In this document: positions 39,853-47,728 of the stretch, piece by piece
How positions within the stretch are numbered: the first letter of the stretch is position 1
How the letters are laid out: each line of letters opens with the position of its first letter
Origin: Pectobacterium atrosepticum
Lineage (GTDB): Bacteria; Pseudomonadota; Gammaproteobacteria; Enterobacterales; Enterobacteriaceae
Reading direction: 5' to 3'
NCBI GenBank assembly: GCA_019056595.1
Contig: CP036163.1
Location: forward strand, 3,720,001 to 3,784,000
Length of the DNA stretch: 64,000 bases
Notes under the pieces: generated by a model
The model's input: only the letters and a program-made list of their open reading frames with translations
The model's database searches: none
What the model was told of the DNA's origin: nothing
Program-made: the position numbers and the translations under genes

Positions 39853-41382
39853 TTATTTCTTGCTGAACTTCATATAATCAAGGGCGCTTTCTGCCGCAAT
39901 ACGACCTGAGTTGAGCGCAAAGCCAAACGTGCCGCCGCCTAACAGCAGGTCATAGGTGTCGCCATACATGCCAGCGGCATCATTACCTGTGACGTACAGG
40001 CCCGGAATGACCTCGCCGGATTTATCTATCGCCTGCATTTTTTCGTTGATCTTCACGCCGCCTAATGTGCCCAGCGCGGCGGGCTGCATTCTCACCGCAT
40101 AGAACGGGCCGGTTTTTATCGGACGCAGGTAATCCATATTTTTGTTGAACACGTCATCCCGTTTTTGCGTCGCAAACTTGTTGTTTTCTTCCAGCGTATT
40201 CTTCAGCACGCTGGCATCCACGCCCATCTCTTTCGCCAGCCCGTCAATGGTGGCGGATTTGAAGACGAAGCCGCGATTTTTCTGACTTTCCTTCGTAAAT
40301 TCGCTATCGAATTTTGTCAGCTTGGTATTGGCAATAACCCATTCGCCAATCGGCACATCAATGCCGTCTTCGACGTAATGTTTACGGGATGTCTCGTCAA
40401 AAATGGAGTACATGATGCCGCCCGCTTTTGACAACGCGTTGCCGGAGTGTGGCCAGATGATGACGTTAGATTCATCGGTAAAGCGGCGGCCGTGTTGATC
40501 AATCCACAGATAGGGCTGACGCGCGGCGGCCAGCAGGTGAGAGTTAGGCGCATAGTCTGGTAGGCCGGGGCGATAGGCTTGCAGCAGACCCATGCCGTCC
40601 GGTTTGGCACCGGCTTTCCAGGCCATATTAATCCCGTCGCCGTCTTTACCGACGTTGCCAACCATAATGGTGTCGGGGAAGGCGGCATATTTTTGCAGCA
40701 TCTCTTTATTGTTGGCGTAGCCGCCAGTGGCGATGATGACGGCCTTGGCGTCTATCTGGAAGGTGTTGCCGTCGCTATCTTGTGCGATGACGCCCGTGAC
40801 TTTGCCGTCTTTCACGACCAGATCTTTACCCGCCGTTTTCACCAACGTGGTGACATCCATACTTTTAAACTGCTCATGGAATGTCTTAATCAGGTGGCGT
40901 CCGTGGCCGGGGCCGTCGATCACATGCCAGGTCAACATACCGCCGGGGCCGCCGGGGCCGATGTATTCAAACTTGATGCCTTTCGATTTCACCCACTCAA
41001 TTGTATCCGCTGAGCGATTCACGAAGGCGCGAACCACAAAGGGGTTTGCCATCCAGTGGCTATAATCCATGATGGTTTTAAACGCCATATCAGGCGTCAC
41101 TATAATCCCCTGACGTTTCTGCATGCTGCTGTTGGCGGCGAAGATGCCTTCGGCAAAGTTACCCGTGCCACCGACGATCGGCTGTTTTTCCAGTAAGACG
41201 ATTTTCGCCCCTTTTTCTGCGGAGGCCATGGTTGCCGAGGTACCAGCCGCGCCTGCACCGATAATAACGATGTCGGCACTTTTCGGGATTTCCGGCTTTG
41301 CTGCGTCCGCTGCCTGTGCGGTAGACCAGCTCATCATCGAGAGACAGAGCGTCGCGAGTACACTTTTTCTGAAGCGTTTCAT
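39853..41382 (-). CDS. Periplasmic FAD_binding_2 flavoprotein reductase (fumarate-reductase-like, substrate unknown)
   Basis: A 509-residue exported flavoprotein. MKRFRKSVLATLCLSMMSWS gives a Sec signal (cleavage near AQA-AD); then the FAD Rossmann motif VIIGAGAAGTSATMA and the fumarate reductase/succinate dehydrogenase fold. The start at 41382 has an AAGGAAAA site. No FMN_bind or heme domain is fused. By eye, the fumarate-active-site residues of Shewanella flavocytochrome c are not kept: the TRD arginine region reads RFTDESNVII, HHTMGG reads ALGTLGG, and NRLGG reads YDLLLGGG. So it probably reduces something other than fumarate. It is last in a five-gene operon with NrfCD-like proteins and a flavinylated carrier. 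Confidence 0.85.
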   Translation of the reverse strand: MKRFRKSVLATLCLSMMSWSTAQAADAAKPEIPKSADIVIIGAGAAGTSATMASAEKGAKIVLLEKQPIVGGTGNFAEGIFAANSSMQKRQGIIVTPDMAFKTIMDYSHWMANPFVVRAFVNRSADTIEWVKSKGIKFEYIGPGGPGGMLTWHVIDGPGHGRHLIKTFHEQFKSMDVTTLVKTAGKDLVVKDGKVTGVIAQDSDGNTFQIDAKAVIIATGGYANNKEMLQKYAAFPDTIMVGNVGKDGDGINMAWKAGAKPDGMGLLQAYRPGLPDYAPNSHLLAAARQPYLWIDQHGRRFTDESNVIIWPHSGNALSKAGGIMYSIFDETSRKHYVEDGIDVPIGEWVIANTKLTKFDSEFTKESQKNRGFVFKSATIDGLAKEMGVDASVLKNTLEENNKFATQKRDDVFNKNMDYLRPIKTGPFYAVRMQPAALGTLGGVKINEKMQAIDKSGEVIPGLYVTGNDAAGMYGDTYDLLLGGGTFGFALNSGRIAAESALDYMKFSKK

Positions 41383-41492
41383 GATGTTTTCCTTGATGTT
41401 ATTAATATTTTTACAACACGGTGTGTTACCGCCGCGTTCCCACTGCCGTATTTCGCGCATGGAGAGCGTCGCACGTGGAAAACCCAACGGGA

Positions 41493-41852
41493 TTAATTCG
41501 CTTTAGCCTGCGAGTACGCATCTTCCGCCGCTTCATGCACTGCACCACTGGTCATCGTGGCACCCGACACGCCATCAACCTGTATGCTCTGCTTTTCGGT
41601 CATAGTTTTTGCGAGTTCGATTGCCGCTTCCCCGCCGACTTCTGGTGTCTCTTCAGGTGCATCAATGGTCGATTTGAGGACTTTCCCCTGTGCATCGATA
41701 TCGAGCGTGACGGTGACATCGCCGCCGATACCCTGTCTGGCGGCAGAATAGGTACCAGCTTTAAAATTCCCTTCTTGTGCGACTGCGGTTTCTACTGCGA
41801 ATAAAAAGCAAAGTGGCAAAATGGCTGAGAATGTTTTCATATAACTTTTCAT
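41493..41852 (-). CDS. Small exported FMN-binding protein with covalent flavinylation motif
   Basis: A 119-residue protein: Sec signal peptide (about 1-25, cleavage near AVA-QE), then one FMN_bind domain. Residues 93-101 read DGVSGATMT, matching the ApbE motif Dxx(S/T)GA(T/S)xT, so Thr101 should carry FMN through a phosphoester bond. It is a likely one-domain electron carrier between the NrfCD-like module and the FAD reductase encoded 110 bp downstream. In UrdA-type urocanate reductases this domain is fused to the reductase; here it is separate. ApbE itself is not in the window. Confidence 0.85.
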   Translation of the reverse strand: MKSYMKTFSAILPLCFLFAVETAVAQEGNFKAGTYSAARQGIGGDVTVTLDIDAQGKVLKSTIDAPEETPEVGGEAAIELAKTMTEKQSIQVDGVSGATMTSGAVHEAAEDAYSQAKAN

Positions 41853-41897
41853 ATAAGTAAGAGAGTCCCGTTGGTTTGAATGAGGTGAATAACTACG

Positions 41898-46630: not shown

Positions 46631-46670
46631 GATTATTTACAAAACCTTATAATTGTTATCATAGGTGATG

Positions 46671-46796
46671 ATACTCGTCATACTTCAAGTTGCATGTGCG
46701 TTGGCTGCGCTTAGTCACCCGAATCACTTACTTGAGTAAGCTCATCGGGATTCCTTCACTTGCCGCCTACCTGAAACTCGAATTATTTAGAGTATA
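46671..46796. repeat. ERIC element, standard length
   Basis: A 126-bp copy with ends ATACTCGTCATACTTCAAG and CTCGAATTATTTAGAGTAT and core CACCCGAATCACTTAC / GTAAGCTCATCGGGATTC. It lies directly upstream of the LysR gene, within its leader or promoter. Confidence 0.88.
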
Positions 46797-46828
46797 TAAA
46801 TGAGGCAGTTGATGCGTAATATAAAACA

Positions 46829-47728
46829 ATGTTTAGCATAAAGCGTGTGATTTATTATCAGGAACTCATCCGGGTCGGGAGTTTCACCAAGGCGGCGAAA
46901 GCGCTGAATATCTCTCAGGCTTTTTTGTCACAGGAGATCGCGCGCCTAGAGATTGAAACGGAAAGAAAACTGATTAACAGAACCACTCGGCAGTTTTCTC
47001 TGACGCCATTTGGGCAGATCTTTGCTGACAAAATTCAGGGGATGATTAAAGAACATTATGAGCTGGAACAGTTCGTTAGCAGCTATGAGGAAAGCACGGA
47101 CGGCGCACTGCTGGTTGGGGTGATCCCAATTTTTAATCGTCTGGCCCACTACAATATGTTTAACCTGTTTCAGAAAGCCTATCCCAATATTGATATCTCT
47201 TTTATTGACGGTGTGAGTACCGATTTACTGGAAAGGGTGCGCAACGGCGAGATCCACCTGTCTTTCTCGACGCCTTTCGATGAATACCTGAACGATCCTT
47301 TGTTTCATCACACTATTTGCCAGATTGATGACATTGTTGCCGTGATGGCGACGTCGCATCCCTTGGCTGACAATAAGACGCTAAGCCTGCCGCAACTGGT
47401 AAAAGAAAAGCTGATCGTTCCGCAGAAAGGGACGGGGGAGCATGCCGCCGTTTCTGAATCCTTCACCAGACAGGGCATCAACCCCAGCTACTTTCGTGAA
47501 TGCAGCAACATGGACATCATTATGGATCTGGTGATGAACCTATCCGGCGTGGTCTTCCTCTGTTCGTCTGTCGCCAAAAGCCTGACTGCTTACGACGTCG
47601 CGGTTATTCCGCTGGAAGAGCAGTTAAAAAGGACTTTCGCCATTAGCTATCTGAAGCGCAGCGTGAACATTCCCATGGTGCGTCTGTTTTTGGATTTTCT
47701 GCAAGATTACAGCGAGTCTGTTCGGTAG
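46829..47728 (+). CDS. LysR-family regulator divergent from the esterase gene
   Basis: A 299-residue LysR protein: helix-turn-helix about 18-40 (FTKAAKALNISQAFLSQEIARLE) and a substrate-binding effector domain (about 90-295). It is divergent from the esterase and next to the flavin respiratory operon, so it is the obvious candidate to sense the substrate and activate both. It could instead control the downstream rspAB cluster, but that has its own GntR regulator. Confidence 0.83.
   Translation: MFSIKRVIYYQELIRVGSFTKAAKALNISQAFLSQEIARLEIETERKLINRTTRQFSLTPFGQIFADKIQGMIKEHYELEQFVSSYEESTDGALLVGVIPIFNRLAHYNMFNLFQKAYPNIDISFIDGVSTDLLERVRNGEIHLSFSTPFDEYLNDPLFHHTICQIDDIVAVMATSHPLADNKTLSLPQLVKEKLIVPQKGTGEHAAVSESFTRQGINPSYFRECSNMDIIMDLVMNLSGVVFLCSSVAKSLTAYDVAVIPLEEQLKRTFAISYLKRSVNIPMVRLFLDFLQDYSESVR

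What the first reader, a model, noticed from the sequence alone, without database searches (positions are those of the whole stretch)
39853..47728. Candidate periplasmic flavin-based anaerobic respiration module linked to an exported esterase
Seen: five minus-strand genes packed with gaps of 0-110 bp or overlaps, encoding Tat-exported NrfC-like ferredoxin, NrfD-like quinol dehydrogenase, DHA2 exporter, exported FMN_bind protein with a flavinylation motif, and exported FAD_binding_2 reductase. Next to them are an exported alpha/beta esterase with a full triad and a divergent LysR. Known: NrfCD moves electrons from quinol to periplasmic partners; FMN_bind plus FAD_binding_2 proteins reduce urocanate, acrylate or cinnamates in other bacteria. 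Inference: quinol to NrfD to NrfC to FMN carrier to FAD reductase, using an alkene acid as electron acceptor. The esterase may release it (for example ferulate or coumarate from plant walls) and the MFS may export the product. NrfCD joined to a split flavin reductase rather than cytochromes is a combination I do not recognise as described.
Basis: partly seen in the sequence, partly recalled or inferred. Interest (0 to 1): 0.82.

Follow-up and report, generated by a model that had tools for sequence, protein, structure and literature searches.

The report
Flavin-based periplasmic phenolic-acid reductase module
Soft-rot plant bacteria carry a conserved gene set that probably passes electrons from the membrane through an iron-sulfur protein and two flavin proteins to plant phenolic acids outside the inner membrane, a likely new form of anaerobic respiration that can be tested directly.

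Summary
In detail: five packed minus-strand genes (NrfC, NrfD, DHA2 MFS, exported FMN_bind protein, exported FAD_binding_2 protein), with an exported BD-FAE esterase and a divergent LysR, in a Pectobacterium chromosome that also holds a normal nrfABCD operon. It is a real unit: NrfC-NrfD-MFS adjoin in 17 of 17 places examined that have a block-type MFS, 15 of them with FMN and FAD genes, in three gene orders and with three FAD types. The reductase lacks the Arg/His set of fumarate/urocanate reductases, so fumarate, urocanate and acrylate are poor candidates. Its best curated match is vinylphenol reductase VprA (below cut-off), but it has an Arg that VprA lacks. The neighbouring clade uses tetraheme cytochromes; one member adjoins a tannase/feruloyl-esterase gene, two have XylR-type aromatic regulators. 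The only three CRP-like sites (up to 3 mismatches) in 64 kb lie before NrfC, between esterase and LysR, and before ManD. Best reading: quinol, NrfD, NrfC, FMN, FAD, then a hydroxycinnamate-type alkene, fed by the esterase. Substrate and direction are inferred; no structure model could be obtained. New variant of a known kind.

The parts
39853..41382 (-). Exported FAD_binding_2 alkene reductase, 'YRPG/W' subclade (R271, W310); terminal reductase
41493..41852 (-). Exported small FMN_bind protein with flavinylation motif DGVSGAT; electron carrier
41898..43274 (-). DHA2/MdtD-like MFS transporter, direct neighbour of NrfD in the block; cargo unknown
43275..44237 (-). NrfD-type quinol dehydrogenase membrane subunit, paralogue separate from nrfABCD NrfD
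44230..44943 (-). NrfC-like Tat-exported multi-[4Fe-4S] protein
45462..46427 (-). Exported BD-FAE-family esterase; linked to this FAD type, not to the whole block
46829..47728 (+). Divergent LysR regulator, likely regulator of esterase and/or operon (inferred)
45120..45141 (-). CRP-like site upstream of NrfC, conserved in window-type loci
46609..46630 (.). CRP-like site between esterase and LysR, conserved
45299..45312 (-). FNR-like site (1 mismatch), poorly conserved; weak evidence
45383..45413 (-). Terminator-like stem between esterase and NrfC
39687..39716 (-). Terminator-like stem after FAD gene

Best explanation
A periplasmic, cytochrome-free respiratory reductase. NrfD oxidises (mena)quinol, NrfC's iron-sulfur clusters pass electrons to a small periplasmic protein with ApbE-attached FMN, which reduces a separate FAD enzyme; this saturates the side-chain C=C of a plant phenolic acid of the hydroxycinnamate type. 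The exported esterase frees that acid from esters; the MFS moves substrate or product (most simply, expels the phenolic from the cytoplasm). Shown here: genes, linkage, block with permuted order, paralogy of NrfCD, flavinylation motif, missing Frd residues, conserved CRP-like sites. Inferred: electron direction, covalent FMN, substrate, MFS role, regulation by CRP and LysR.
For: One unit: NrfC and NrfD lie directly upstream of the MFS in 17 of 17 places, in the 15 family genomes (of 295 searched) that have a block-type MFS; FMN and FAD genes are there in 15 of 17; three gene orders occur with three FAD types. Module NrfD is one branch, apart from nrfABCD NrfD (99/97, 14 rows). Partner swap: in a 43-row tree the window type groups (100/100, 18 rows) with four proteins that all adjoin a tetraheme cytochrome, and the NrfCD-FMN label as I set it needs two changes. 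Reductive side: VprA is the best NCBIfam match (393 bits; 33% identity to an L. plantarum protein that scores 784 against that model). Phenolic acid: Shewanella mangrovi locus L101 = tetraheme c, FAD, OprD, tannase/feruloyl-esterase family PF07519, whose esterase has no significant similarity to the window's; XylR_N-V4R-sigma54 regulators of the aromatic-catabolism kind divergent from L082 and L084. R271 stands at the Fcc3 H365 column in 30 of 72 homologues, and W310 at the R402 column in all those 30; VprA has G and F. Esterase: 11 of 12 places with window-type FAD, 0 of 3 with other FAD types, 0 of 2 without FAD. CRP-like sites: 3 in 64 kb against 0.28 expected, all three in this neighbourhood; site before NrfC in 16 of 16 window-type rows given, 14 distinct loci.
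Against: No substrate or activity is shown. Two places keep NrfC, NrfD and MFS but lack FMN, FAD and esterase (L194, L196), so these three may do something else or be relics. In two further, more distant clusters NrfD (L052) or NrfC and NrfD (L056, broken) stand on the other strand from MFS-FMN-FAD, and in L092 and L097 a YRPG/W FAD gene has no NrfCD beside it. P. fontis and Edaphovirga cremea have the operon without the esterase. NrfC scores below its equivalog cut-off and the FAD protein below VprA's. The hydrophobic-segment test did not flag the window FAD's N-terminus at the threshold used, though a 36-residue leader precedes the FAD motif. Genus co-occurrence of FAD and esterase is partly trivial since the genes are neighbours. 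The tree tool warned that long branches meet in the NrfD tree. The alignment near R271 and W310 has gaps: one Fcc3 alignment puts Y270, another R271, at His365, and R402 falls beside rather than on W310 in the HMMER alignments. No structure model.
Confidence: 0.55

Rival explanations
1. Same electron chain, but the acceptor is a vinylphenol (made by phenolic acid decarboxylase) or a phenolic ester such as chlorogenate, as in a respiratory VprA.
For: VprA is the best curated match; H109, W152, H153, D475 and Y477 are shared with the VprA-type control; the genome has a phenolic acid decarboxylase.
Against: The subclade has R271/W310 where the VprA-type control has G/F. Decarboxylase is in only 10 of the 20 Pectobacterium genomes with an intact FAD gene and its product would arise in the cytoplasm (recalled). 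A feruloyl-type esterase yields acids, not vinylphenols.
Confidence: 0.17
2. The chain runs backwards: the FAD enzyme is a KSTD-like dehydrogenase that oxidises an esterase product and feeds electrons by FMN, NrfC and NrfD into the quinone pool.
For: 3-Ketosteroid dehydrogenase chains are the next matches after Fcc3 and UrdA; CRP-like sites suit a catabolic role; NrfD-type proteins can work either way (recalled).
Against: The neighbouring clade pairs with tetraheme cytochrome c in anaerobes and Shewanella, the usual setting of terminal reductases (recalled); the nearest characterised family, VprA, is a reductase.
Confidence: 0.12
3. Detoxification rather than respiration: efflux by the MFS plus periplasmic reduction removes antimicrobial plant phenolics, without energy gain.
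For: MFS is DHA2/MdtD-like and constant in the block; MFS genes of other subgroups sit in 8 of 14 non-enterobacterial loci of this FAD subclade.
Against: Use of quinol through NrfCD links it to respiration; the two roles are not exclusive with the best explanation.
Confidence: 0.25
4. An ordinary nrf nitrite-reduction remnant with unrelated neighbours.
For: NrfD passes the NCBIfam cyt_nit_nrfD cut-off (468 against 347.6), so that model alone would name it so.
Against: Complete nrfABCD elsewhere; NrfD on a separate branch; no haem motif in the cluster; block recurs with FMN and FAD genes in three orders.
Confidence: 0.03

Closest known systems
Vinylphenol reductase VprA (NF053717; Lactiplantibacillus plantarum)
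   Same: Closest curated family; H109, W152, H153, D475, Y477 shared with the L150 control; lacks Frd Arg/His set; LysR neighbour (VprR in L. plantarum, passages of PMC10295242; a LysR gene also in L150)
   Different: L150 protein has no leader and no FMN or NrfCD gene beside it; lacks R271 and W310; 33% identity; window protein below the model's cut-off
UrdA urocanate reductase and FccA/Fcc3 fumarate reductases
   Same: FAD_binding_2 family, extracytosolic alkene reduction; FMN domain in UrdA
   Different: R402/R411, H504/H520, R544/R560 all replaced; FMN on a separate protein; donor NrfCD encoded alongside (UrdA is fed by components encoded elsewhere, passage)
Fumarate reductase-like flavinylated gene clusters (eLife 2021, PMC8238504)
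   Same: Extracytosolic FAD reductase joined to FMN-binding domain; modular flavin/cytochrome exchange (passages)
   Different: Main text has 0 occurrences of words beginning 'Nrf' (supplements not seen)
NrfABCD nitrite reductase
   Same: NrfD and NrfC homologous, same order and overlap
   Different: No NrfA or NrfB beside it; FMN and FAD flavoproteins instead; separate NrfD branch
HcrB hydroxycinnamate reductase of L. plantarum
   Same: Reduces side-chain C=C of hydroxycinnamates (section 7, part 1 of 2, of PMC10295242)
   Different: Requires NADH; cytoplasmic (recalled); not compared by sequence here

Membership tests
Fumarate/urocanate reductase (Frd/Urd) enzymes | FAD_binding_2 domain | tested here: met
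   207 bits against a cut-off of 20.4
Fumarate/urocanate reductase (Frd/Urd) enzymes | Catalytic and carboxylate-binding Arg402/411, His504/520, Arg544/560 | tested here: not met
   None of the three residues in any of 72 sequences, window included; all three present in the genome's own FMN-FAD fusion used as control. HMMER alignments to Fcc3 also show no Arg/His there, with small shifts around R402. Fcc3 numbers H504 and R544 are recalled; UrdA numbers
VprA vinylphenol reductase | NCBIfam NF053717 cut-off of 600 bits | tested here: not met
   393 bits; control L150 783.8
VprA vinylphenol reductase | Reduces vinylphenols | not testable with these tools
   needs enzyme assay
NrfABCD nitrite reductase system | NrfD equivalog score | tested here: met
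   468 against 347.6
NrfABCD nitrite reductase system | NrfC equivalog score | tested here: not met
   325.5 against 377.6
NrfABCD nitrite reductase system | NrfA/NrfB cytochromes beside NrfCD | tested here: not met
   no CxxCH in the six minus-strand proteins; the true set is elsewhere in the genome
ApbE-flavinylated FMN_bind proteins | [S/T]GA[S/T]-like motif in an exported FMN_bind domain | tested here: met
   DGVSGAT, 52.8 bits; motif as given in PMC8238504
ApbE-flavinylated FMN_bind proteins | Covalent FMN | not testable with these tools
   two ApbE genes in the genome, neither in the cluster
BD-FAE esterases | PF20434 score and catalytic triad | tested here: met
   175.6 bits against 26.8; GASAG, Asp and His candidates
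BD-FAE esterases | Feruloyl esterase activity | not testable with these tools
   closest solved chains by sequence are a lipase-named chain, an acetyl xylan esterase and a carbohydrate esterase

The most novel reading that the evidence does not exclude
A movable donor unit, NrfC-NrfD-MFS with a flavinylated FMN carrier, has been joined at least twice to different FAD reductases whose nearest kin use cytochromes, giving soft-rot enterobacteria a cytochrome-free periplasmic respiration on esterase-released hydroxycinnamates, by a pocket in which an Arg at the Fcc3 His365 place and VprA-like phenol-end residues replace the Frd Arg/His set; the MFS is part of the donor unit's function.
Probability: 0.4. 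Interest if true: 0.78.

Novelty: new variant of a known kind. Interest (0 to 1): 0.62.

Why it matters
It would add an electron-donor route (NrfCD to a flavoprotein pair) to periplasmic alkene respiration, tie plant cell-wall phenolics to the anaerobic energy supply of soft-rot bacteria, and define by sequence a reductase subclade (YRPG/W) seen here in enterobacteria, Shewanella, Rhodocyclaceae, Sutterellaceae, Desulfobacterota, Deferribacterota, Nitrospirota and one Clostridium MAG, which general models place nearest to vinylphenol reductases or flavocytochromes c. It also warns that this NrfD passes the nitrite reductase subunit model and could be misnamed.

Tried and rejected
Structure prediction of the FAD protein (alignment A3) was asked for 13 times and never accepted because the queue was full, so no fold search was made. 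A FNR site: one 1-mismatch site upstream of NrfC, but sites up to 2 mismatches are no more frequent in the window than in shuffles (35 against 31.9), and 8 of 16 window-type rows have no site of up to 1 mismatch there (L058, L061, L070, L073, L074, L075, L076, L078); kept as weak. Phenolic acid decarboxylase as the substrate source: patchy, 11 of 25 genus genomes. Plasmid copies: the listed best FAD relatives on plasmids reach only 32%; no block-type MFS at E 1e-60. Module-type NrfD in other families of the class: in 369 genomes at E 1e-60 only the window's own, its nrfABCD NrfD, and G096's NrfD, which lies by an nrfA and fell with nrfABCD in the tree. Literature: searches listed no paper that I could recognise as joining NrfCD to an FMN_bind/FAD_binding_2 pair; two listed papers holding both kinds of word were opened by passages and concern other things, a third mentions them only in its reference list. 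Most subscription papers are not in that library, and one gut-respiration paper that I recalled by DOI was not held. Rows dropped: 9 of the 79 named loci gave no FAD ORF over 430 aa after my overlap filter (L080, L081, L085, L088, L096, L113, L114, L129, L138; several are broken copies), and the L093 row was a paralogue (its right copy, seen, has YRPG and W too, making 31). In one search, L052, L056 and L155 gave no NrfD row (not found in my ORF list, or under 250 aa). In one search, L052 was labelled 'neither' although an NrfD lies near by, and L202/L203 were not in the tree. The 17 block places were chosen by MFS similarity of 42% or more, which leaves out L052 and L056.
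Full report
What is there. The window lies in a 5.04 Mb genome whose nearest named relatives are Pectobacterium species. On the minus strand stand NrfC (44230-44943), NrfD (43275-44237), a DHA2/MdtD-like MFS (41898-43274), a 119-residue exported FMN_bind protein (41493-41852) and a FAD_binding_2 protein (39853-41382), with gaps of -7, 0, 45 and 110 bp. 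A BD-FAE esterase lies 518 bp upstream, with a LysR gene divergent from it. The FMN protein carries DGVSGAT; NrfC carries SRRRF; no CxxCH occurs in the six proteins. Two ApbE genes lie elsewhere, one beside a 977-residue fusion with FMN_bind and FAD_binding_2 matches.

It is not the nitrite system. The genome has NrfA, a five-haem NrfB, NrfC and NrfD in a normal operon around C2:833776-837317. In a 14-row tree the ten module NrfDs form one side of a branch against four nrfABCD NrfDs (99/97; the tool warns that long branches meet), although the window NrfD passes the NCBIfam nitrite-reductase model.

It is one unit. FAD copies: in the genus 19 of 24 other genomes are full length, 2 are broken, 3 have none; of 147 genomes searched only three outside the genus have a copy of 79% identity or more. 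I then used the MFS: 15 of 295 family genomes have a copy at 42% identity or more, in 16 places, the next listed matches being at 34-36%. With the split MFS of Edaphovirga (L049) this makes 17 places, all examined (the window itself; L047-L050 and L059; L194-L204). NrfC and NrfD lie directly upstream of the MFS in 17 of 17; FMN and FAD are present in 15 of 17. Orders seen: NrfC-NrfD-MFS-FMN-FAD (window type and L202), FAD-NrfC-NrfD-MFS-FMN (L050), FMN-FAD-NrfC-NrfD-MFS (L203). The two exceptions, L194 and L196, belong to the genus group that holds Brenneria izbisi (inferred from matching contig length) and lack FMN, FAD and esterase at the locus. Outside this set, in L052 and in the broken L056, MFS-FMN-FAD stand together but NrfD or NrfCD are on the other strand, and L092 and L097 have a FAD gene with no NrfCD beside it, in records of the same strains as L075 and L074, which have the full module.

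What the reductase is. The best curated family is VprA (393 bits, cut-off 600), against 232 for flavocytochrome c. I aligned 72 homologues (window, L052 and 70 of 79 named loci) with two controls: the genome's own canonical FMN-FAD fusion and an L. plantarum protein that passes the VprA cut-off (784). None of the 72 has any of the three residues Arg402, His504, Arg544 (Fcc3 numbers), whose UrdA counterparts PMC7921117 (passages read) describes as carboxylate contacts conserved in the Frd family. The window's subclade has R271, within YRPG, at the Fcc3 His365 column (30 of 72; 31 with the right L093 copy), always with W310 at the Arg402 column; W alone occurs in two more (L100, L103). H109, W152, H153, D475 and Y477 are shared with the VprA control. 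HMMER alignments to Fcc3 agree that the Arg/His set is missing but shift the gaps: His365 falls on Y270 in one template and on R271 in another, and Arg402 beside W310. I read this as a phenol-end pocket like VprA's with an added carboxylate-binding Arg. That is an inference; no model was available. N-terminal leaders, from the longest ORF: 30 of 31 YRPG/W proteins have 27 or more residues before the FAD motif (in L083 my motif search failed), while 26 of the 41 others have 12 or fewer. My hydrophobicity threshold flagged 21 of 31 against 2 of 41, and not the window.

Partners and neighbours. In a 43-row tree the window type (14 rows) groups with four proteins that each adjoin a tetraheme cytochrome (18 rows, 100/100; the root is for drawing only), and the NrfCD-FMN label as I set it needs two changes. 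In Shewanella mangrovi (L101) the locus reads tetraheme c3, FAD, OprD porin, tannase/feruloyl-esterase family protein, with a divergent GntR; this esterase shows no significant similarity to the window's. L082 and L084 have divergent XylR_N-V4R-sigma54 activators; L084's is nearest to the phenol regulator MobR model, though far below its cut-off (362 against 999). MFS genes of other subgroups occur in 8 of 14 non-enterobacterial YRPG/W loci (L082, L083, L084, L086, L087, L090, L093, L142). Thus transport and phenolic context recur independently.

The esterase. It is present in 11 of 12 places with window-type FAD, 0 of 3 with other FAD types and 0 of 2 without FAD. In the genus it is in 20 of 25 genomes: 19 of the 20 with intact FAD (G018's copy is in two pieces), 1 of the 2 with broken FAD (itself in pieces), 0 of the 3 without. 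Since the genes are neighbours this is partly trivial. Independent support: the only three CRP-like sites of up to 3 mismatches in 64 kb (0.28 expected; no shuffle of 100 had three) lie before NrfC, between esterase and LysR, and before ManD. I looked for them in 21 related loci.

Verdict. A quinol-NrfD-NrfC-FMN-FAD chain acting on a phenolic alkene acid is the best reading (0.55). Most certain is the unit itself; least certain are the exact substrate and what the MFS carries. The combination is a new variant: known parts, a donor-acceptor pairing that I did not find in the papers searched (an incomplete library), and a reductase subclade that fails the Frd/Urd residue test and the VprA cut-off.

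Noticed in passing
47811-47832 and 47880-51935: A ManD-type mannonate dehydratase, a Zn dehydrogenase and an MFS follow the LysR on the plus strand, with their own CRP-like site; likely a hexuronate operon, linked in most but not all relatives examined (not found by L048 and L049).
   Followed up: partly
G000:C2:730029-732592 (L160 4939-8927): A 977-residue fusion with FMN_bind and FAD_binding_2 matches beside an ApbE gene; it keeps the Frd active-site residues. Possibly a cytoplasmic NADH:2-enoate reductase (recalled).
   Followed up: partly
L194, L196: NrfC-NrfD-MFS without FMN, FAD or esterase at the locus; the three genes are open, so they may have a use of their own.
   Followed up: partly
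   Followed up: partly
L110 (Lacrimispora) and similar clostridial loci: A relative with Q instead of R271 and no leader sits with an FMN reductase-like protein and a 696-residue iron-sulfur/pyridine-nucleotide protein; perhaps a separate NAD(P)H-fed branch.
   Followed up: no
L094, L095, L098: YRPG/W reductases of Mesosutterella and Dakarella beside a Crp-type regulator, with no electron donor recognised near by.
   Followed up: no
L075, L092: The record titled Serratia marcescens 1001295B groups with Symbiopectobacterium in the FAD tree and shares its genus label; probably misnamed.
   Followed up: no
36124-36942 and 36969-39623: A transposase-like ORF and an alkA-ada-alkB-like alkylation-repair set abut the cluster; repair genes are neighbours of the module in several genera.
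   Followed up: partly
L077 6144-7606: The MFS of the Edaphovirga cremea window-type module is split in two frames while its second module (L091) has an intact one.
   Followed up: no
G020:C1:2959927-2960847: One Pectobacterium genome has a second esterase of the same kind (51% identity) away from the module.
   Followed up: no
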